A stretch of DNA of 64,000 bases from Sisyra terminalis (taxonomy: Eukaryota > Arthropoda > Insecta > Neuroptera > Sisyridae): positions 64,800,630 through 64,864,629 of the forward strand of contig OY292274.1 in assembly GCA_958496175.1 (NCBI GenBank), written 5' to 3'. The notes beneath the pieces were generated by a model. The model did no database searches. It saw only the letters and a list, made by a program, of their open reading frames with translations, and was not told the DNA's origin. The translations under genes and the position numbers were made by a program. Positions 2,475 through 23,400 of this stretch are shown one piece after another (within the stretch, counting starts at the first letter, position 1; every line of letters begins with the position of its first letter).

Positions 2475-3233
2475 ATGAATCCTTTAAGATACCATAACCT
2501 CAATGGTACCGAACTTTCACTCTGTATTAATAAACAGGACGAATTAAACACCTGTTTGGAATTTACGGTAGAATATAAAAAACATAATTACTTTAGTAAA
2601 TTAAAAAATGTTATTGCACCAAGTGCTCTACTCTTAGTTGTGTATATGGTGAATGGTATGAATGCGTATAGCTCATATTTTGCAACAGCTATTATAATAT
2701 GTTTTATTACTTATCAATGGACCAATAAATTAGAAAAAGGTTTGAAAAAAATTAAAAAAATTTTAATTTATAATAACGTTTTTCTCTTTTGCAGAAAGTT
2801 TATTAGTTGTAGCATCAATTGGAATTCAAATTACACAAACTTATTCCTGTGGACAGAATGAATCACGGTTTATCCCTTGGTATAATATCAAAGATATTTT
2901 TATCAATGAAGTGATCCATTTGGTATTAAAGTTTCTTAAATAAATCTTCAATATTTTTCTTATAAGTTTCTTTCAATTTCAGCAACGTATCTTGTATCTT
3001 CTTACAGTATTAATAGAAAATACAAACACCAAGGCTGATAGTAAAAATGAAATAATTCCATTATTTTCGGTATGTTTTGCGATTTTACGATCATTTGCTT
3101 ATTAGTTTTTGAGGAAATTTATTCCAATTAATAATAATTAAATTTTTAGAATACGAATCCACCTCTTGCCTGTTTGGAATTGATGTACAAATATATTCAA
3201 AATATTTTTAGTTCGCATGGTTTGATATCCTGA
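2475..3233 (+). CDS. PIGH: PIG-H, GPI N-acetylglucosaminyltransferase subunit H
   Basis: PIG-H is a subunit of the ER membrane enzyme that transfers GlcNAc to phosphatidylinositol, the first step of GPI anchor synthesis. Four exons fit: 2475-2739, 2795-2922, 2983-3069 and 3150-3233, with introns of 55, 60 and 80 bp. They give 187 residues; the vertebrate protein is about 188. A paired hydrophobic hairpin (VIAPSALLLVVYMVNGM and ATAIIICFITYQW) lies at about residues 45-80. The diagnostic PIG-H core follows the first splice: ESLLVVASIGIQITQTY, then FIPWYNIKDIFINEVIH. The phase-1 first donor (G|GTTTGA at 2740) is what restores the family's ESLLV motif, which supports the join. The stop is TGA at 3231-3233. 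The ATG at 2475 is the first in frame. Confidence 0.9.
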
Positions 3234-3560
3234 AAAAATGTTTTTATGGTAAATTATTGACAAAGTTGTATAATATAAAAAAATATATAAACAAATTAAT
3301 TTGATTTTTTTGAAATTGCCCACACTTTTATGAACACCTAACATACCGATATTAGCTATGTTTATTTCATAACAGTGTTAAGAGAGATAAGAGATGTGTG
3401 AATTTAAAGTGACAGAAAAAGATAGCAAATATTCTAATTTTAAGCATGCGTAATATGTGCGGCGTGAACCACAACGTGTTTTCCCTATTTTCAAAATGTT
3501 TTAGAGGTTACAAATTATAAAAAATCAAAGAAAATTTCGTCTTTTTTATAATTAAAGATC

Positions 3561-5333
3561 ATGTCTCAGTATAAAATAGGAAGTATATCAGATTTAATAT
3601 CAAAAAGTTCCAACCAATCGACTAAAGCCTCCAAAATTGTTAACAAAACCGTATCTGCTACTCCTGTTACTGTAGAAATAAAAGGAAAAAAACCGAAAAA
3701 GAAAAAGGCTGGAAAGGCTAAATCAAAAATATCATCAGAATTAAGTGCTAACAATGAAGTTTTATCAAACCAAGTCAACAATACGGAATCTGAAGAAGAA
3801 ACTCAAGAAAATTCATCTGCTGGTGAAGAGTTTGAAGAATTGCAGCATGAAGAAATACAAACTAAAAAAGGAATCAAAAGAGGGAAGGAAATAAATGAAG
3901 AAGAGGACAATACTAAGAAAAATAAAAAATTGAAGGAAAATTTAGAAGAAGAAGAAACAGAAGTCGTGGCTCAAAAAAAGACTAAGAAAAAAGCCAAGAA
4001 AGAGTCTAAACTGCAGGAGGCAACTGAACATAATGCTGAGGTAGATGCGATTCAAAAAAAGAAGAAAAAGAAATCTTCGAAAACACAGGAGGCTACTGAA
4101 AGTGATAATGAAGATAGCATGGAGTTAAAAGATAAGGATGTAAGCTCTGATTCTGTTACCAAAGAAAATGAAACGAGTAACGATGATCAGGATGATTTAG
4201 ATTTAGTTGATGACCGAACAATTTTTGTGGGAAATTGGCCTGTAAACAAGCTAAAAAAGCATTTAAAAGCGCTGTTTAAAGAGTATGGTTCAATCGATAC
4301 AGTTCGATTTCGAAGTGTTCCGCTTAAAGATCCTCGAATTTCCAAACGGGTGTCTGCCATAACGAAACAATTTCATCCAGATAGGACTTCAGTAAATGCT
4401 TATGTTCGATTCGCCGACGTTGAATCAGCCAATAAGGCACTAGCAGCCAATGGATTACTCTACTGTGACCACCATTTACGAGTCACTTTATCAAATAAAT
4501 GTAAATTTATCAAAAGTCATACCATCTTCATAGGCAACTTAAACTTCAGTAAGTTTCTTGAAATATTACAACCTTCAATCTGTAATCGTTTTTAATTTAG
4601 ACGTGGAAGACGAGGAGCTGTGGAAGGTGTTTTCGGTTTGTGGGGAAATCGAGAGTGTTCGAATTCTTCGCGACGCCAAAACAGGAATGTCCCGGGGATG
4701 TGCTTACGTTAATTTCAAAAGTGACGACGGCGTCGAACTTGCTATGCAAATGCCGGAAACTTCAATCAAAGATCGAGTGATTCGAATCAAACGTCCCGAA
4801 TCTAAACCCAACAAGTCCAAAGTCAAATCAGAAAACTTTCTTAATAAATTCAACAAACAAATATCGAAAAACATACCGAAGAAGTCACTGGAGAAAAATA
4901 AAAAAACGTTTCAGGGATCTGTAGGAGCTAAAAGAAATGTAAGAAGTTCGTTATTTTTCCATCAAATGCACAATGAAGTTTTCAGCTATTTTCTATACAC
5001 TTTTTTTCTTGAGCATTTTTATTATGTTTACAATATAAAAGATACAAAATGTATAGGTCTATGTTAAATGATTTTATAACTTTTACTTAAACTCTAATAT
5101 GATAATAGCATTTAAAGTTCTGGCCAAGGCTAAGAGACTTAAAACTTCTTTTAAAGATACATTACTATTAACACATAGGTTTAACATTGCACCAAATCAA
5201 TATTTTTTTTCATCAATTAATCGTAAATTTTTGATTTTAGAACAAGAATTTTAAACGAGCGAAACGACCCAGGCCATCGTTTCAAGCGAAATCGAAAAAG
5301 AAGTTTAATAAAAGTGAAAATGTTGCAAAATAA
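3561..5333 (+). CDS. RBM34: RBM34-like nucleolar RNA-binding protein, two RRMs
   Basis: Likely orthologue of RBM34 (yeast Nop12 group), a nucleolar protein linked to large ribosomal subunit maturation. Exons are 3561-4548, 4601-4938 and 5241-5333, giving 472 residues. Residues 40-215 are a lysine/glutamate-rich, low-complexity tail with KKKKK clusters that should act as nucleolar localisation signals. RRM1 starts near residue 218 (RNP2 IFVGNW at 221-226, RNP1-like VNAYVRFA at 278-285) and carries the long insertion common in RBM34. RRM2 is split by intron 1: RNP2 IFIGNL at 322-327, then VEDEELWKVFSVCGEIESVR and RNP1 RGCAYVNF after the splice. The short third exon is basic (KRAKRPRPSF) and ends in TAA at 5331-5333. 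AATAAA at 5383-5388 is a likely poly(A) signal. The gene starts 327 bp after PIG-H on the same strand. Confidence 0.9.
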
Positions 5334-5751
5334 ATTTAAAAAAAATTAAAATTAATTTACTTTGTTATACAATGTTTATATTAATAAAGTATTTGCGTTA
5401 ATTTCAATTTCTTAAGCTTATTTATTTCAAAAAATATAATTAAAGTTAAGGACCAATCAAAATAATTTATTTTGACAGTTCTAAGCTAGAATAGTTCCAT
5501 ATATTCAACTCAATAATCATTCTTACCCGTTTTTGGTTGAAGAATGATGGGAGATAATTATCTCAAAACAGTAGAGAAAGACCGAAAAACACTGGCTAAA
5601 GTTTGTACGGCGTGTATTCAATTGGATAATGCCACCAATGTGCATTATGTCAATTGATGTCAGTGTAACATGTTTACCTATTTTCAAATTTCTCTAAATT
5701 GTGTGAAAAAGTATACAAATTTAATTTATTAAAGAAATTTATCGTTTAATA
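5334..5751. other. Intergenic spacer between RBM34 and NIP45-like genes
   Basis: 418 bp holding the RBM34 poly(A) signal and the presumed promoter and 5' UTR of the next gene. No ORF or repeat is recognised. There is no obvious TATA box. Confidence 0.5.
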
Positions 5752-6669
5752 ATGTCTTCAGAAGATAGTGATTTCGATTCCTATTTTACGGATCCTCATC
5801 AACAGCTGAAGAACTTGAAAAATAAATTATCCAAAAATGAAAGTACAAAAGAAAAAATAATCGTCGAAGATCCAATAAGCGACGATATTGAAAACATGTT
5901 ATCAAATATTCCAAACGATGATGACATCAGTGATGAAACAGATTCAATGCCTTTGTCGCTGAGAATATCTTCGACTAATCGTAGATCCTCATCCCGGAAA
6001 CGTAGGAATCAATTTTCATCTTCGAGAAGAAGATCCAGAAAAGGTAACAAGAGTAGAAAAGTGGAGGATATAGTTCTTTTATCTGACGAAGAAAATATAA
6101 ATAGTTCACCCATTATTTTATCCGACAACGAAAAATCCACCAATTTGGATAAGTCGACAAATTTTAAGTATTCAGTGCTTATTATGTGGGCATCGCAAGT
6201 CGATAGATGGTTTGATTTGGACGCAAATGAAACGTTTGAAACTCTTTTCAACCATTATTCCAAGCAAAATAACATCTCTAAAGATTTAATTGCGTTTTTC
6301 GTCAACGAAAATCAAATTGTTAAGCCGAGCGATACACCATTGAGTCTGGGAATATCTTCGGGTAGCATAATCGATGGCGGGTTGCTGAGCAAACCGTACT
6401 TGGACAATTATATCGCGGCTGTTCCCGAGAAAAACGAGTATACCATAAAATTAAAAATTCAATGTGAACATTTAAAACGACCGTTTTTTATACATATCGA
6501 CCAGAACGATGAGTTTCGTGTACTTTTAAATAAATGTGCTCAAGAGTTAAGTGTTTCTTCGGATAAATTAAAATTAAATTTCGATGGAGATCCACTGTCG
6601 ATGTCTGCGACGCCGATTACCATGGATTTTTCTGGAGGAGAATGTTTAGATTTATACCTGAAGAAGTAA
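5752..6669 (+). CDS. NFATC2IP: NIP45/Rad60-type protein with two SUMO-like domains
   Basis: Intronless 305-residue protein of the RENi family (Rad60, Esc2, NIP45), which couples SUMO pathway enzymes to genome stability. The N-terminal third is acidic and serine-rich, followed by a basic patch (RRSSSRKRR, SSSRRRSRKGNKSRK, residues 77-103) suitable for nuclear import. Two candidate SUMO-interacting motifs follow: IVLLSDEE at 107-114 and IILSDNE at 121-127, both a hydrophobic run followed by acidic residues. SUMO-like domain 1 covers about 140-215 (VLIMWASQVDRWFDL). Domain 2 covers about 229-304 (TIKLKIQCEHLKRPFFIHID to FSGGECLDLYLKK) and ends without a diglycine, as usual for this family, so it would not be conjugated. 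The start ATG at 5752 is the first in frame, and the stop is TAA at 6667-6669. Recognition rests on domain layout and fold-like pattern, not on alignment. Confidence 0.85.
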   Translation: MSSEDSDFDSYFTDPHQQLKNLKNKLSKNESTKEKIIVEDPISDDIENMLSNIPNDDDISDETDSMPLSLRISSTNRRSSSRKRRNQFSSSRRRSRKGNKSRKVEDIVLLSDEENINSSPIILSDNEKSTNLDKSTNFKYSVLIMWASQVDRWFDLDANETFETLFNHYSKQNNISKDLIAFFVNENQIVKPSDTPLSLGISSGSIIDGGLLSKPYLDNYIAAVPEKNEYTIKLKIQCEHLKRPFFIHIDQNDEFRVLLNKCAQELSVSSDKLKLNFDGDPLSMSATPITMDFSGGECLDLYLKK

Positions 6670-7814
6670 TTACTCTTTAAAACGCTCATAATTTTTATTT
6701 GAAACTAAAATCTAATAATTTAATCTGTTATGCATATCATTATAATCTCGTTATTTAGGTCTTGCAATTATTTTAATTTTATTTTAAAATTTAAATTAAT
6801 TTTTATTTTCCTCAGATATTTAAGCTAAAAAATATATCTTAACACCATAAAAATGTTTCTTATGAATCTTAAATATAAAACAATGTTTTCTTTTGTAGAT
6901 GAGATAACAAATTGCGAATAAAGATTTTAAGCAATTCTATGTAAAACACATGACAAAATAGAACTATATAAGAATTGAACATGATAAATATTTTTTTCAA
7001 TTGGTCAAAAAAAATATTAAATTTTCTGCTTTGTCATAACTAAATTTTACTATAGAAGGAAATAAATCAAACTTATGTTGCCAAATATTTTAAGTAAATA
7101 ATTGGGTAACATTCACGATGAGAAGACAATAACCACAATAATAATTATGTATAAATATTATAACAACCGAATCGTTTTAATTAGAATTTAACCCTTTTTC
7201 CTAGTACTCAATAGTTGAATAATACGAAATCATCATACGAAATCAAACGTTGTACCATGGACAAATAATAAATGTTTTACTTAGAAATAAAAATGTTTAC
7301 AATTATTAATTTATCGAATAAAACACAATGGCATTTTTTGTTTGTGTTTTAATAAATCAGGTTCTGTTAAGAAATAGTATTAATATATGATTATATAAAA
7401 TAATTATCAAATAATTACATAAAACAATAAAAAGACTGTTCAAAATTAATCATTTCCTGTTTGCAATAAAAACATTCAAATCCCGTTTGTAAATATTCTT
7501 CATTGCTAAAATTAAAATAAATAAAATATCGAGACGATTTACGTCATATCTAAAATCGAATTTAAACGAGGTTTGTATGGAAAGTTCATAAGTGAAGAAA
7601 AAGGTGTTATTCTATATTTAAGCCTATATCCTTGTGCTTGATACTGATTAGGTTTATTATTACCTTAGGATAGTAATTTCAATTTATACGTAATTTAGTT
7701 CCACTTCCTTAAAAATCCTTTTCTCTCAGAAAGAATATCCAAAAAGTATAATAATCTATTTGGATTTTTTGTTAATGAACTTTGCGTACAAAACTCATCT
7801 AAGTTAAAATTTTC
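6670..7814. other. Intergenic DNA between convergent NIP45-like and HAP2 genes
   Basis: About 1.1 kb of AT-rich sequence separating two genes that converge. It should contain both 3' UTRs. Several AATAAA motifs occur on both strands, for example near 6918, 7061 and 7317. No coding potential or repeat was recognised. Confidence 0.5.
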
Positions 7815-14466: not shown

Positions 14467-17400
14467 ATGGCCAAGTATCACACGTCGATTCTAGTTTTAC
14501 TCATATCCGTCAATTTCGTAATTAGTTTTCACATCAAGTTCGACCGACCAAAAAATCAACCTCATTCAAAATTCCACGATTTGTTCGACGATGACGATTC
14601 CAGAGAACAGACGGAATCTCCCCGAAGAACGTTGCTGCCTGTTAAGCCTGTGAAAGCGGTCAAAGCCTCGGTGAATAAAACGGCCGCGGCCGTCGAAGAT
14701 GACGGCAAAGTGAAGGAAATTCTCGAAAAGTATTCCATGAAACGTGCATCTGCCAACAAAAGTGCCGAAGCTGATGTCAAACCCAAACTCAAAATTCCAA
14801 AACGTAACACTTCCGAAAAAGTTGAGTCGAGTGCTGATAAACCAAGTGTCGCGGAACTTCCGAAACCCAAACCGGAAACCAAACCACCGCCCGTTGCCAA
14901 ACCTGCCAAAGTCGAAGAAAAGAAACCTGAAAAATCCGTTAAAGCTGAGCCACCGATAAAAAAGCCTGACAAACCCAAACCCGCACCGCCACCGCAAGAA
15001 AAACCCAAACCCAAGCCTCCGCCTCCAAAACCGCGAAAGCCTCGGGCCTACGATTTACTAAAAGCACGCTATTTTGAACGGTTCTACTATTCATTTCCAA
15101 CATTTGCCCCAAATTACACGCGAATCGACAATTTAGAATGTCGGGTTCAAGGACAGATAGTGCGACGCCAGCTGAAAGCTGGGAAAGTTTGGGCCATGAA
15201 AAGTAAGTTTTTCATTTGGCGACAATTATTCGTTTTGCATTTCATTCATAACTTATTTAAAACTCACATATTTTGGATGCAACAATCAACTTTCATTGAT
15301 GCTTTGCATTAACGTTTTTCTTTTTATTCTTACGTATACTTTGTGCTAAATTTAGCTGACACTTGACAAGTATATTTTAAAAGAATTTAACAAAATAACT
15401 TCATTTCAATATTTACTGTGGCTAAGTGTATTTATAGAAATCTATAATTCTTGAGTGTTTCACAATCTGGGAATCGATTTCGATTGGAATTGTAACGTAA
15501 AATGTTTGCTTTTCGGTCTTGCAACAGACAAATTTTCAAATGATTCCATTTTTTCTTCCAATTTAGTCCTGGATCTGGCAAGATCCTTCAGATATAATCC
15601 AGACTTTCGGGTATTCTTCTCTCATTTCTGAAATTCCTCATTCGAATTTAAAACACCAAAAAATAACTAAAATTAAGTAGAGCGAAAACAAATAAAGATA
15701 TCAACTCAAATTTTGTATATTTTTTTTTAGCTGATATACCACTAAATTGTTATAGTTTCTATTTTTAAATAATTGATTTTTTGGTTGAATTATTTCAATT
15801 TTTTGAGTTATACTTACCCATGAGATTAATGTTAGTACTATAAGAAGAATTCTGGCTGTATTGATTTAAAATTAAAAGCACACAAAATTTCTGCACTTTA
15901 TACACTTTGACGACTTTTCATGGAAATGTGTGGCACATAAAATCATAAAAAGGTTTTTTTTTTACTATTTTAAGCATATTTTGGTTTACAAAAAGATTTT
16001 TTTTTATATAATAAAGGGGCTTCCGAGTCTTTTGAGTAATTACTTCATTATTTAATTTGAAAAACGGCCGTAAATTTTGTTCTGTTGAAGTACAAACGAT
16101 TTTTTGTGGATTCTTCCGGGTGCTGGTCTCTAGTTGATGGTACCGTTTGAATTTTCGTTTGTATTTCAATCGGAAATGGATTTTTCCGACAATTACTGAT
16201 TTTCTTTGGAATATTTTCCAAATCCAACAGTGGTACAACCTAGATATTGTGTTGCAGAGGATTATACCGGAAAAATATTCGTTTTAACTCTAATGAATAT
16301 GTGTAATTAGACTCTAATTACTTCATTGATGAAATTACAAAAACATTACACTAATAAAAACCGTCATTATTACCATTGGAATTGAGCTAGAAGGAATTTT
16401 TTTTCGGTACAATCCTCTACAACACAGTATCTAGGCTGTACTACTGTTGGAGTTGGAAAATATTCCAAAGAAAACCAGTAATTGTCGGAAAACTCCATTT
16501 TTTTTCGATGAAATACAAACCAAAAGTCAACCGGTACCATCAACTAGAGACCAGCACCCGGAAAAATCCGGAAACAAATTCGTTTGGACCTCAACAGAAC
16601 AAAATTTACGGCCCTTTTTCAAATTTAACAATGAAGGAATTAGACTCTAATTAAATTTACAAAAACCATTATAACTATTGTTCGGATTGAAAAATCTAAC
16701 AATGGGGGGCTATCGATTTTAAACAATTGAATATCTTTTTTTCGGTTGAGGTACAAATGAATTTTTTTTCGGTACAATCAAGTTCAAACAAAAAATATAG
16801 TTAAAATTTTAATTTGACAGAGGTAGACAAATATAGTAAATTGTGAACAACAGTAGAAAGGTGATTATTAACTTCAGCATTTTTGTCCTTTTTTTCAAAA
16901 CATTGTAATTTTTTTGAACTATGGTAATAATGGAAATTTGTAACCATGATTGTTTGATTATAAACGTTGACGACTTTTCATGAAAATGTGTGGCACATAA
17001 AATCTTAAAAGATTTTTTTTTTTGATAGTTTTTTATGTATATATTAACACCCGACCTCAACAAATTAAAATTTTAAATGTTTTTAGATTGACTATTGTTT
17101 GTACTTGATTGTACCAAAAAAATTTTCGTTTATACCTCAACCGAAGAAAAGTTGTTCAATTTTTTGAAATCGATAGTCTCTAATTGTTAAATTTTCAAAA
17201 TTTTTTACGGCTATAGATGAGCGTTGAAACGTAAAGGATTTTTGTATCAAAAATTTTTGGTTCTAACTTTAACCCAAAGTCCATTGTTGAATTTTATAAC
17301 GCCTGTTATTTCTTTTAAACTGAAATACAAACAAATTATATTACAGTGCAATTTGGGTGATTATTCATAGAGGAATGTACCAAAAAAATTTTGGTTCCAA

Positions 17401-20400
17401 CTCAATCCCAATGACGATTATTGTATGTATTATTAGACTCTAATTACTTCACTGATGAAATTATAAAAATATTACACTAACAAAAACCGTCATTATTGTC
17501 ATTGGAATTGAGTTAGAAGGAATTTTTTTTCGGTACAATCCTCTGCAACACGATATCTAGGTTGTACCACTGTTGGATTTGGAAAATATTCCAAAGAAAA
17601 TAAGTAATTGTCGGAAAATTCCCTTTTTGGGTGAAATATAAACGAAAATTCAACCGGTACCATCAAGTAGAGACCAGCACCCGGAAGAATCTGCAAACAA
17701 ATTCGTTTGGACCTCAACGGAATAAAATTTACGGCCCTTTTTCAAATTTAACATTGATGGAACTAGGCTCTGATTACATTTACAAAAACTGTTATAACTA
17801 TTTTTCGGGTTAAGTTTAGCCCATTTTTTTTCGGTACAATCAATGCTCATCTATAGCCGTTAAAATTTTTGAAAAATCTAACAATGGGGGGATATTAATT
17901 TTGAACAATTGAATAACTTTTTATCGGTTGAGGTACAAACGAATTTTTTTCGGTACAATCAAGTACAAACAAGTCAATTAAAAAATATATTTAAAATTTT
18001 AATTTGAAAAAGGTTTACAAATATAGTAAATTGTGAACAACAGTAGAAAGGTGATTATTAACTACAGCATTTTTGTCCATTTTTTCAAAATATTGTATTT
18101 TTTTTTTGAACTATGGTAACTATGGAACTATGGTAATAATGGAAAATTGAAACTATGATTGTTTGAAATAATTGAAAACAATCGTCAACGTTACAGGAAG
18201 ACGTCACAAAATTTGCTAGACAACAAAAGTAAGTGCTACTTAAAAACGTATTTAGCATAACTAAAACAAAAATTTTAGTAAATGGCCAATGCGAATTCAA
18301 CCCCGAAAAGCCGCAGTGGCTTTCGAATTAAATTGGATGACGAAATTCTTGAAATAACCCCGATATTTCGACTTTCGGAACCGTTTGAGATCATATCCAA
18401 CGAGCCATCTTCAAACAATTGGACCCAATCGCAAGAAACGGGCAATTTTTTAACGGATATTTCAACGTCATCTATCTCTTCATTCGAAGACTTTAATTTC
18501 AAAAGCACATTTTTCAAATTGGATTCACTCGAAAGAAATTTTGAAAATTTGACCAAACACGAAAAGAAGATAGCTAATAACTTTCCCATTGTTGATGGTC
18601 CAAAGTATGTTACCATCGATCCTTTTCTTTTTCAACAAATGCAGGACGTCAAATTTCAACTTCCCAATAGGATTTTGAGTGATTTTTCGTTGATGAAGGG
18701 AAACTCGTTTCGAGTTTCGCTTGATAATCTTGGAAAATTGTCTTTTCCGTTCGTGAGAAATTCGGTGCAGAGTAAATTTTCAGTTGCTCAATACAAAACC
18801 GTTCAATTCGATGATTTCTTGATAAAACGCATTGTTGAACATTTGAAAATTGAATTAAAATACAGCCAAATTGTTGAAGATGACAAAAATATACCGTTTA
18901 TCAAATCTGTTCCTGATTTGGACATATTACACGAGCATACAAATTTGAGTCACCGATTTTTGAAGAATGATTTTCATGGATTTCAAATACACTATGAGTA
19001 TCATCTATGGCGATTGTTCGAAACTCTTTGGGGAAAATCAAACGATAGTTTAGATTCCCAACATTTTGCTAGTATAACTCGGCGCCAATATTTTTCAAAG
19101 TGGTTACAAGAACTTTTGGAATCTTACTACAGGTATAAACAAGTTCCGGAAAACATTCTTAACTTGATTGTTGCAGGAAAATTGAATCAAGCTTGTCACA
19201 GAGCGATGAGCCATAAACATCCAACTTTAGCTCTGCTAATCTCCCAAATGGCGTTGGATGATGCAAGTTTGCATTTTGTGCAAACATCTTTGCAAACTTG
19301 GATCGATTGTGGTTCCGATCAATTTGTTTCTCCAAGTCTTTTAGCCATTTTTGGACTTTTGGCTAAAAAAGTTTTAATCAGACGTTCGAATAATGATATT
19401 TTTGCCATTTGTAAAAACTTAAATTGGATTCAATGTTTGGGTATCTATAATTGGTGCATCACTCCGTACGAGGCCACTGTTTCTGATGTCGTCAAAGATT
19501 ACACCGACGGATTTTTGCATATCGAAAATGAAATTCCATCTCCGGTTCCGATTTACCAATTGGAAAATATGGGAGAAGCAAATTTAATGTCGGAGACCTA
19601 CGATTTGTTTTATCACCTGTTAAATTTGTACACCTGGAAAACGTATCCCTTAACGAAGATATTGAACTCCACAAGTTATTCCAAACAATTGTTAAACTAC
19701 AGTCTCAGTTGGTTCGTCATGGAAAATTTAAAAAGACTCAACTATAATTTGATGAGGGAAAAAACCGAAATTTTGATTCTCACCCGTTTTGCCATGCAAC
19801 TTGAACTAAATAACCAATGGCACTGGTCAGTTTTTATTCTCTTACATATACCAAATATTCATCTTCGGGAAAAATATGTCACTGAAACTATCCAACGTCA
19901 CATTTCCCTAAACCAAACCCGAGACACAGAAGAAATCGAAAATTTTCTGGTGAAAACCCTAAAAATTCGTTACCCAGTCCTGGCAACAGCCAAGGGGTTG
20001 CTCGCCCAATTTCAAAACCAAACAACTCTAGCTTTTACCTATTTTCTAGTAAGCGACCAAAAGCAAACGGCTTCCAAACTATTCTGGAACCATGTTCTTC
20101 CTAAACAATTAGTAAACCGCAACTATTCTTATTTGCGGAAAATTATCCGGTACCTACAAAAAAACTATCCCTACGATGACAAATTAAACGTTATCCTGTT
20201 TTACATCCGGAAAATTGTTCCATTAGTCTCAATAATTTCCACCGAAATAAATGTTGAATATCTTGAGGAAAAGTTGAACACTGTTATTTCCGAGTTGGTG
20301 GAAACTTGTGGAAAAATTATTCAATTTGAAGCCAAAACCAACGAACAGATGCTTATGCTAAATTGTTTGTCAGAAGACATGTTTATGATACTTAAAATTT

Positions 20401-23400
20401 ACATGGAAAAAATAAGCCAAAAAGAAGATAAAGCTGCGTTAACAATGGCCACATCTAATCTTCGTCTATCTCCGAATTTTGTGATGTTTGAAATACGAAA
20501 TTTGTCGGATATTGTCTATGATGTTTTTAATTATAATTTTTAATTTCTTGAAAATAAAAAAAATCTGAAATTTGAGGATAGTTTGATTTTTTTTCTTAGT
20601 GGAGGGTGTGTATTGTCTACATGTACCTACAAAATGACTGATTTTTAATAGAACCCTAAAATTAGTCTGCCCATGCACCCTTAATTAAATGTCTTAACTA
20701 ATTAAACATAACTTTACATACTTATTCCATACTATCATACAAAGTTTAACTTCATATTAAGTCATTACGACATACTTTTACAGGCACCACTTTTTGGATG
20801 CAAATTAATGCAAGGGTACATTATTTTTTTACTGTTTTTTGTTATTGTAGTGTTGGATTCAACTGCCAAATTACCTCCGGGAATACTACAAGGAAATCTC
20901 AATCAATTGGGTGACTACGACGAATGTCTAGACATCTCCACCAGACTATTAGTCAGTGAAAGTCGCCATAAAACTGTTAATATTCAAGGCAAATATTGTC
21001 TGGTTCATGTCGACATTGAAGCGGTTTCGGAAGATATGAAATTGCCGGTCAATCTAATGCAAGCCAGAGGATTTCTTAAGAGTAAATACGAAGATGTAAG
21101 TTGTAATGATACAAAGATTTTTTTCAATTTTTGAATCATTTAAGATCAATGTTTGGTTTAGCCTGGACATTTCATCCCACGATTTTCAACGTTACATTGG
21201 GGCGTATGTGTTCCAGCAGGATGCGACGCTGACGATGTTGAACAAATAATGCGGGATTCACTCCGTCCATATAACTATTCTAAATCAACTGGACTGTTAT
21301 TTAAGGTTCATGCTACCGATGACGATTGTACCACGGCAACAGATTCAGCGTTTACGTGGTCTATTCCGACGATTTTAACAATGTAAATCATGACAAGATT
21401 TAATTTCTATGAGTATTGTTGTGGAAATAGTTAGGTTTAACCGGATAAAGCACATGAAAAGTGCATAAAAAGCTTACACTTTAGTCAAAACATATTTTTA
21501 AGTCTTTAAGAAGTTTCCTATGTTATTTATTATTGTGGTTCTTAATGGGGATGATATCATCACCCAGAGATGGTTGGAACTTTTTAAAGGGACAACAGAA
21601 ACTACACTAATAGAAAAAGAGAATAATCTTAAGAAAGAGCTATAATATTGTTCCATTTTTTTGAAAACTGGTATTATAAACATATATAAAAGAAGAGGTT
21701 TTGTTCGCCAAGAAAAGGCTCATAAAAATATGGCTATACCTAAGGTTTATAAGAACCCGAAAATCTATCTTTAAGATTAAACCAATGATTTAGTTTTCTA
21801 TGTTAGCTCTCGTATTTTCGTAGATACCCAGAAGGAAAATTAGATAAGAAAATATATCTTAGTTATTTTATACTTAATCACACGTTTTTTTAGAGGTTTG
21901 CTCACGACAATTGCCGTTATAGTGGTAGTAGCTACCATTAGAGATTATTGGCGAAATGTTGAGGATGATGGAACAGTCGAAAAGGCATTAATGTCGTTTT
22001 CACTAAAGCGAACCGTTTCCGATTTATTAAAGTCGGAATTTTCGGCGACAGAAATCACTTGTGTTTATGGTATTCGAGGAGTTTGTACCATTATGCTCTA
22101 TTTGGCACATAAATTGATTCCAATCGGAGGAACACCCTATTCAAACCGAATTCAATTAACTACGGTATTTGGTTTTTTCAAAAAAATGAAATCGGAATGA
22201 ACATTAATCTCATTTCAATTTTTAGTTGGCTAATGGAGAATGGAGTTCTCTGTTTCGTGGGTCCCTTATCTACACTGATTCGTTTTTATTGTTGAGTGGT
22301 CTACTCTCAGCGTACAATATGAGTCGAGATTTGGAAACGAAAAATACTGTTGACTGGTTTAATAGATTCGTTTCCCGTTTCTTACGGTAGTTAGATTTTA
22401 TGTTTTTTTTCCGGTTAATTTTTCAAGTTGATGTTGGTACTGTTTTAGGCTGACTCCAGCGTTGGCTTGCACCGTACTATTTTATGCGTATATTTTTGAG
22501 TTTCTCGGCTCGGGGCCGTTGTGGAACTCCCAGGTCGGAACCAATGCAGACTTGTGTAAGGAGAACTTGTGGCGAAATTTGTTGTACATCCAAAATTTCT
22601 TTCCGTTTGAGGAAACGGTAGGTGTTGGCGTTGAAATTAGGTGTTGGAATTACATTTTTGGGTTTTAGTGTGGGACACATACACATCAATTGGCACTTGA
22701 TATGCAACTTTCGTTGTTGGCTCCTATTTTGGTTTGGTTTCTGTATCGGCGGCCATTTATTGGAGTCATTTTGGTAACAGGATTGAACGCTTTGTCGGTC
22801 GGGCTTCGATTTTATTATACGTCGCAATATCAACTTTCTCTATTTATCTATCATGGCATTACGTAGGTATACTCTACATCGAAAATGAGACTCTTGAAAT
22901 AATTTATAAAAATGGGTTTGATTTAATAGCAAAGAATGTGCTTGCTTTAAGCTTATCCAGATTTCCCTTACTCATCTCTCCCGAATATATTGTCGAAATA
23001 TATTCAGGAGATCCTGAGGATATTTTTATGCGCCCTAAGAGAGGTGTATCTTCCCAGTCTATGGAAATTTATGAACAATTCCTTCTATTACAAATACATT
23101 CATTGTTATTAAACCAAAACCAAAGATTTGACCCAATATATATTTTTTTATTAATAATTTTTAGATTATCTCAATTATATCGAACGGCAAATAAATCATA
23201 TGGAGTTTCCCTCCATCGAGCAACTCCATACATCGCTGGTGTATGTCTAGGAGTTTTACTCCGTCAAATTTCTAAGAGAGATTTCTATCTACCCAAAGTA
23301 ATCACAATCTAAGTTAATTCAGAAGACTGAAGGATTCAAATATATTTTTCTAGTTTGTAGGCATTGCTGGTTGGTTGATGACAGCATATTTTACCGGTTG

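What the first reader, a model, noticed from the sequence alone, without database searches (positions are those of the whole stretch)
18282..20543. Intact intronless Nup96-like gene nested in an intron of a membrane acyltransferase gene
The frame is open for 753 codons and carries the full Nup96 solenoid signature, yet it has no Nup98 part, no autoproteolytic domain and no introns. Nup96 normally comes from a Nup98-96 precursor, so a free-standing Nup96 needs its own start and promoter. Retroposition into the nrf-6-like intron explains this best. An intact frame implies a selected function, perhaps a testis- or tissue-specific pore variant.
Basis: partly seen in the sequence, partly recalled or inferred. 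Interest (0 to 1): 0.8.

Follow-up and report, generated by a model that had tools for sequence, protein, structure and literature searches.

The report
Free-standing retrogene copy of Nup96
An animal genome, probably an insect's, carries besides its normal fused Nup98-Nup96 nuclear-pore gene an old, intact copy of only the Nup96 half inside another gene's intron (and a copy of only the Nup98 half on another chromosome), so the two products of a self-cutting protein also exist as two separate genes.

Summary
Confirmed. ORF 18282-20543 (753 aa) is a Nup96 (PF12110 E 7.9e-60), on the same strand inside a 5.6-kb intron of an NRF-6-like gene. A normal fused Nup98-Nup96 gene lies on contig C7, its Nup96 part in six exons by my model. 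The copy lacks the parental introns, so retroposition is the best account, though no insertion scars remain. It is old: 33% identical to the parent, synonymous sites saturated, no stops, and not faster than the parent in one relative-rate test (52 vs 55, p 0.77). Nup107, Nup93 and Nup85 each gave one locus. So a second Nup98/Nup96 set exists as two genes that need no autoproteolysis. A germline-biased pore subunit is the likeliest role; expression and species range are untested. A 50-nt candidate intron sits in the leader, so 'intronless' holds for the coding frame.

The parts
18282..20543 (+). Nup96-like coding frame, 753 aa, no introns, no stops
   Evidence: the ORF listing; PF12110; PDB Nup96 matches; open-frame chance
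18528..18761 (+). codes residues ~83-160, alignable to the parental segment before the solenoid (LSDFSLMKGNSFRV vs LGDLSLMKNRAFRS); probable Sec13-binding blade (that role is recalled, not tested)
   Evidence: parent-copy alignment; identity 28% in residues 81-120 and 38% in 121-160
19149..19997 (+). PF12110 Nup96 solenoid domain (residues 290-572)
   Evidence: genome-wide
18229..18278 (+). candidate 50-nt intron in the 5' leader (GTAAGT...TTTTAG), followed by TAA then ATG
   Evidence: 1 of 2000 mononucleotide shuffles gave such a pair in the same 120 nt; the same pattern occurs twice on the whole + strand of the window and not on the - strand
20553..20558 (+). AATAAA poly(A) signal 9 nt after the stop codon, followed by a short A run
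14467..15202 (+). host gene exon 1 (NRF-6-like; signal-peptide-like start and Pro/Lys-rich stretch by eye; ends in ...VWAMK and supplies NRF profile positions 1-21)
15203..20850 (+). host intron 1, 5648 nt, contains the Nup96 copy on the same strand
   Evidence: splice sites; domain completion
20851..21095 (+). host gene exon 2 (NRF domain continues; exon 3 from 21162)
15898..18166 (.). cluster of direct and inverted repeats in the host intron upstream of the Nup96 copy

Best explanation
An mRNA of the fused Nup98-Nup96 gene, cut short at its 5' end, was reverse-transcribed and inserted into intron 1 of an NRF-6-like gene long ago (shown: fused parent elsewhere, introns missing; inferred: the insertion event). 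The copy gained its own start codon and short leader and has been kept as a protein-coding gene by purifying selection (shown: no stops, parental rate in one test, saturated synonymous sites). Its protein keeps the Nup96 solenoid and the segment before it, but has no Nup98 part and no N-terminal segment of the cleaved Nup96, so it should enter the outer-ring (Y) complex as a ready-made Nup96 that needs no self-cleavage (inferred). A second intronless copy on C3 supplies a free-standing Nup98. Together they form an alternative, uncoupled Nup98/Nup96 set, most likely used in a particular tissue such as the male germline (inferred, not shown).
For: Family. Fused parent with autopeptidase (143.1 bits) and six-exon Nup96 part (my exon model). 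Introns: the parent has five in the Nup96 part (56, 59, 1589, 57, 60 nt); three map inside the significantly aligned part of the copy (near residues 256, 390, 612), a fourth near residue 83 by the global alignment only; none is in the copy. Selection: 33.1% identity over 643 columns, E 4e-108; pS 0.755 saturated, pN 0.449 over 601 codons; in simulated neutral decay (300 runs per level, base changes only) 3% of runs were stop-free at 0.02 substitutions per site and none at 0.05 and above; relative-rate 52 vs 55, p 0.77, and ML branches 0.94 (parent) and 0.90 (copy). Nesting. Split partner on C3. Controls: Nup107, Nup93 and Nup85 each gave one locus. Precedent: in Drosophila retro-duplicated nuclear transport genes are testis-enriched (PMC8645118, passages) and Nup98-96 is needed for germ-line transit amplification (PMC3174998, title, start of abstract and passages).
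Against: No target-site duplication and no clear poly(A) tail remain, as expected after long decay but also no positive proof. Against human Nup96 the copy scores lower than the parent (170 vs 206 bits), and yeast Nup145C sequences are matched by the parent only, so the equal-rate result rests on one vertebrate sequence and one alignment. The first ~100 residues show no significant match to the parent. The C3 Nup98 copy changes faster than its parent (31 vs 13, p 0.007), so the two copies need not share one history or role. No RNA, no relative genome and no expression data; the germline role is inference.
Confidence: 0.82

Rival explanations
1. DNA-level duplication or gene fission: the Nup96 exons were copied or moved as DNA and lost their introns one by one, or the parent gained its introns after the split. 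The copy works as a Nup96 in the same way.
For: A 50-nt candidate intron remains before the ATG and could be a relic of a DNA copy; no retroposition scars survive; the split is old enough for intron gain or loss.
Against: At least three, probably four, parental introns are absent together; the Nup98 copy on C3 is also read in one frame across the place where the parent must splice into its autopeptidase exon; the copies sit on different contigs from the parent.
Confidence: 0.12
2. Recent retropseudogene whose frame is open by luck.
For: Retrocopies are usually dead (general knowledge); no transcript evidence was available here.
Against: Only 33% identity with zero stops in 753 codons; simulated decay gives about 7 stops already at 0.05 substitutions per site; PF12110 score close to the parent's (205.8 vs 210.4 bits).
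Confidence: 0.01
3. The nested gene is the true, only Nup96 of the species, joined to Nup98 by trans-splicing or an upstream exon.
For: The gene is intact and the candidate acceptor at 18278 could accept upstream exons.
Against: A fused Nup98-Nup96 gene with the HF|T motif exists on C7; TAA stands in frame between the acceptor and the ATG.
Confidence: 0.01
4. Functional copy, but with a role away from the pore (for example chromatin or mRNA control), not as a Y-complex subunit. (Overlaps the best explanation on origin; differs on role.)
For: The C3 Nup98 copy has fewer FG motifs and a GLEBS below the cut-off, so the set is not a plain spare; the Nup96 N-terminus is new.
Against: The whole solenoid and the segment before it are kept at about the parental rate, which points to the same binding partners.
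Confidence: 0.2

Closest known systems
Nup96 part of the Nup98-Nup96 polyprotein (animals, fungi; Nup145C in yeast)
   Same: Nup96 solenoid PF12110 and vertebrate Nup96 similarity over about 500 residues
   Different: Own start codon, no Nup98, no autopeptidase, no introns in the coding frame, N-terminal segment of the cleaved Nup96 not recognisable
Separate Nup98 and Nup96 genes of land plants
   Same: Nup96 and Nup98 encoded apart; PMC8685260 states this for most plants (one passage read)
   Different: Here the fused gene is kept as well, and the separate copies look retro-derived
Retro-duplicated nuclear transport genes of Drosophila (Ran-like, Ntf-2r, importin-alpha and Nup93 copies)
   Same: Intronless duplicates of nuclear transport genes; the Drosophila ones tend to testis-enriched expression (PMC8645118, passages)
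   Different: That survey reports Nup93 as the only one of 30 nucleoporins duplicated in Drosophila, and outside Drosophila it searched the classes duplicated there, so Nup98-96 was not among them; here Nup93 gave one locus
Retrogenes nested in introns (for example mouse Mcts2 in H13)
   Same: A gene nested in a host gene; PMC13309782 reports that nested transcription can drive host intronic polyadenylation (abstract only)
   Different: No imprinting evidence here; effect on the host not tested

Membership tests
Nup96 (PF12110) | solenoid domain above the curated cut-off | tested here: met
   202.8 bits against cut-off 25; 205.8
Nup96 (PF12110) | best solved relatives are Nup96 and no other ACE1 protein | tested here: met
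   7 of 10 PDB sequences matched at E up to 1 are Nup96 or Nup98-Nup96; the other 3 are weak (Elongin-C twice, BTG2)
Nup96 (PF12110) | binds Sec13 and Nup107 in the outer-ring complex | not testable with these tools
   sequence only; the one structure model, made without an alignment, was useless, mean pLDDT 31.1
Nup98-Nup96 polyprotein | Nup98 autopeptidase directly upstream in the same frame | tested here: not met
   none at E up to 0.01 in the + frames of 14-24 kb; TAA before the ATG
Functional retrogene | parental introns missing from the copy | tested here: met
   3 of 5 lie within the significantly aligned part, a 4th by global alignment, all absent; the 5th falls at the copy's start and is not informative
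Functional retrogene | poly(A) tract and target-site duplication (expected in young copies) | tested here: inconclusive
   not found: no shared 10-mer between 17951-18290 and 20541-20850, only two T-run 9-mers; AATAAA followed by a short A run. At this divergence such marks would have decayed
Functional retrogene | intact frame under purifying selection | tested here: met
Functional retrogene | transcribed | not testable with these tools
   no RNA data held
Nested gene | lies wholly in an intron of another gene | tested here: met
   host NRF domain completed only by splicing across it; splice sites

The most novel reading that the evidence does not exclude
This lineage carries a second, old and selectively kept Nup98/Nup96 set made of two separate retrogenes (Nup96 on C1, Nup98 on C3), the Nup98 copy ending at the former cleavage site with a changed cleavage motif. 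A polyprotein that ties the two nucleoporins together by self-cleavage has thus been taken apart into independently regulated genes, probably for a germline-specific pore, while the fused gene serves the rest of the body.
Probability: 0.4. Interest if true: 0.78.

Novelty: new variant of a known kind. Interest (0 to 1): 0.62.

Why it matters
Nup98 and Nup96 come from one precursor gene in animals and fungi (PMC8685260, one passage). Why the fusion is kept is, to my knowledge, open. A genome that holds the fused gene and two free-standing halves lets one ask directly whether the coupling and self-cleavage matter, and in which tissue they do not. Nup96 is also linked to hybrid lethality in Drosophila (PMC4232535, title and start of abstract in the listing), and nuclear transport retrogenes to male germline conflict in flies (PMC8645118, passages), so an old Nup98/Nup96 set elsewhere would be an independent case.

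Tried and rejected
Protein database searches with the whole ORF and with the solenoid found nothing (0 of 7041 and 0 of 690 candidates), so no insect Nup96 could be used for a tree; dating rests on one vertebrate outgroup. Structure prediction without an alignment failed (mean pLDDT 31.1), and no fold search was made. A weak Elongin-C match (E 1e-4 with a 100-aa piece; E 0.0017 with the whole ORF) overlaps the Nup96 alignment, involves two Elongin-C chains and has no Skp1/BTB support in Pfam at E up to 10: rejected as chance. Weak Pfam matches to DUF2538, DUF4845 and RPA_interact_C are below their cut-offs: rejected. No target-site duplication. To name the species I searched for its genome size; no paper held that phrase together with the second term (5 of 1,392 listed). 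Of 84 beetle papers 40 were listed; none of those abstracts gives 376.6 Mb (nearest 377.55 Mb, with 10 chromosomes). Nup160 (PF11715) did not complete. Seven literature searches on the genes listed no paper whose title or start of abstract tells of a Nup96 or Nup98 retrogene in insects; three of the listings were well short of all matches (15 of 22, 15 of 77, 10 of 69), so this is the extent of the claim.
Full report
What is there. The frame at 18282-20543(+) is open for 753 codons, against a chance of about 7e-28 under the base composition of the surrounding intron. It is a Nup96: PF12110 at E 7.9e-60 and six Nup96 or Nup98-Nup96 chains at E 8e-49 to 4e-47 over residues about 180-687. In the two alignments printed the match runs through without large inserts, so no hidden intron lies in that part.

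Surroundings. Host exon 1 (14467-15202) ends ...VWAMK with donor GTAAGT; exon 2 begins at 20851 after TTGTAG. Joined exons give a complete NRF domain, 102.9 bits over profile 1-121, against 79.6 bits from position 22 when exon 1 is left out. The Nup96 frame is therefore inside host intron 1 (15203-20850, 5648 nt), same strand. Upstream of it, 15898-18166 is a cluster of direct and inverted repeats. In the leader, GTAAGT at 18229 and TTTTAG ending at 18278 frame a 50-nt candidate intron; 1 of 2000 mononucleotide shuffles gave such a pair in the same 120 nt, and the pattern occurs twice on the + strand of the window and not on the - strand. The three bases before the ATG are TAA, in frame, so no coding exon can be joined to this start through that acceptor. 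AATAAA lies at 20553. No autopeptidase or other Nup98 domain is found at E up to 0.01 in the three + frames of 14-24 kb.

The parent. The window is C1:64800630-64864629 of a 376.6-Mb assembly in 11 contigs. A search with the ORF gave three matches, itself and two pieces of one gene on C7; PF12110 gave two loci in the genome (210.4 bits on C7, 205.8 bits here; the tool scores only its best candidates). The C7 gene starts near L005:9214, has FG repeats, a strong GLEBS (87.5 bits), an autopeptidase (PF04096) and the junction VPHF|TRYALLPDE, followed by 839 residues of Nup96 in the exons L006 2360-2522 (its last part), 2579-2872, 2932-3555, 5145-5544, 5602-6269 and 6330-6721 (exon model mine, from reading frames and GT-AG sites). 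Its five introns there are 56, 59, 1589, 57 and 60 nt. In the copy the positions near residues 256, 390 and 612 (inside the significant alignment, residues 104-710) and near 83 (global alignment only) carry no intron. The fifth maps to the start of the copy and tells nothing.

Age and constraint. Copy and parent are 33.1% identical over 643 columns. Synonymous differences are saturated (pS 0.755; pN 0.449; 601 codons). Against one vertebrate Nup96 over 485 columns, parent and copy are equally distant (29.1% and 29.7%), while they share 35.9% with each other; Tajima counts 52 vs 55, p 0.77; ML branches 0.94 (parent), 0.90 (copy) and 1.70 (vertebrate). Neutral decay would have left about 7 stops at 0.05 substitutions per site. 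So the copy is old and has been held by selection at about the parental rate. Counter-signs: against human Nup96 the copy scores 170 bits and the parent 206, and the parent alone matches yeast Nup145C. Taken at face value the split is deep, perhaps older than the family or order of this animal, but with one outgroup and near saturation this is only an inference.

The other half. PF04096 gave two loci: C7 and a second on C3 (137.7 bits, open frame of 817 codons, no stops). The C3 gene (L022, minus strand, ATG at 7051, stop at 4649, 800 aa) has an FG-poor N-terminal part (11 FG and no GLFG, against 29 FG and one GLFG in the open frame that holds the parent's main Nup98 exon), a weak GLEBS (21.6 bits, below the cut-off of 27) and an autopeptidase domain 45% identical to the parent's. 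Against vertebrate Nup98 domains it scores 137 bits where the parent's scores 181. It ends ...WIFISQNFSGN-stop where the parent reads ...WVFRVPHF|TRYALL: three residues after the cleavage position, with the His before Phe changed to Asn. That this His is part of the catalytic motif is recalled. In the parent the main Nup98 exon and the autopeptidase exon are in different frames, so an intron lies between (269 nt with the best of five listed donors, my choice); the copy is read through in one frame. This copy changes faster than the parent (31 vs 13, p 0.007). A possible 73-nt intron near its start was seen. Nup107, Nup93 and Nup85 each gave one locus, so 3 of 3 other nucleoporin families that were answered are single at this sensitivity; Nup160 was asked once and not answered.

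How it probably works. The Nup96 copy keeps the solenoid and the segment before it and has its own ATG, so it needs no cleavage. It should occupy the Nup96 place in the outer ring, perhaps in the germline: Drosophila retro-duplicates of nuclear transport genes tend to testis expression (PMC8645118, passages read), Nup98-96 acts in germ-line divisions (PMC3174998, start of abstract and passages read), and Nup107 and Nup133 act in spermatids (PMC13142455, a preprint, abstract and passages read). If C7, the smallest large contig (22.7 Mb; the others 46.9-71.5 Mb), is the X, as the smallest chromosome is in two Cantharis assemblies, both copies moved from X to autosomes; this is untested, and so is the species. 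Being on the host's strand, the copy's poly(A) signal could also shorten host transcripts, as at H13/Mcts2 (PMC13309782, abstract read); untested.

Novelty. Separate Nup96 and Nup98 genes are known in plants and nuclear transport retrogenes in flies. Seven literature searches listed no insect Nup96 or Nup98 retrogene (limits in Tried and rejected). The combination of a kept fused gene with two free-standing halves is a new variant of known kinds.

Noticed in passing
L022 (G000 C3:19610001-19620000), minus strand, 7051-4649: Second Nup98 gene, one open frame of 800 codons, ending three residues after the autoproteolysis position with His replaced by Asn; FG-poor and GLEBS-weak.
   Followed up: yes
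L006:2523-2578 (C7): Retention of the 56-nt intron just after the Nup98-Nup96 junction would add a short tail and a stop, giving a Nup98-only product like the short mRNA reported in Drosophila (PMC3174998); such an mRNA could be the source of the C3 copy.
   Followed up: no
window 15898-18166: Cluster of direct repeats (83-92% alike) and inverted repeats (arms up to about 190 nt; 16037-16642 aligns to its own reverse complement at 82%) just upstream of the Nup96 copy, foldback-like.
   Followed up: partly
window 18200-18207: GACGTCAC, near the CRE palindrome, in the putative promoter of the Nup96 copy; seen by eye, may be chance.
   Followed up: no
L006:3556-5144: The 1589-nt parental intron is far longer than its neighbours (56-60 nt); looks repeat-rich by eye, not analysed.
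   Followed up: no
G000 C7: The fused gene lies on the smallest large contig (22.7 Mb); in two Cantharis assemblies the smallest chromosome is the X, so both copies may be out-of-X.
   Followed up: partly
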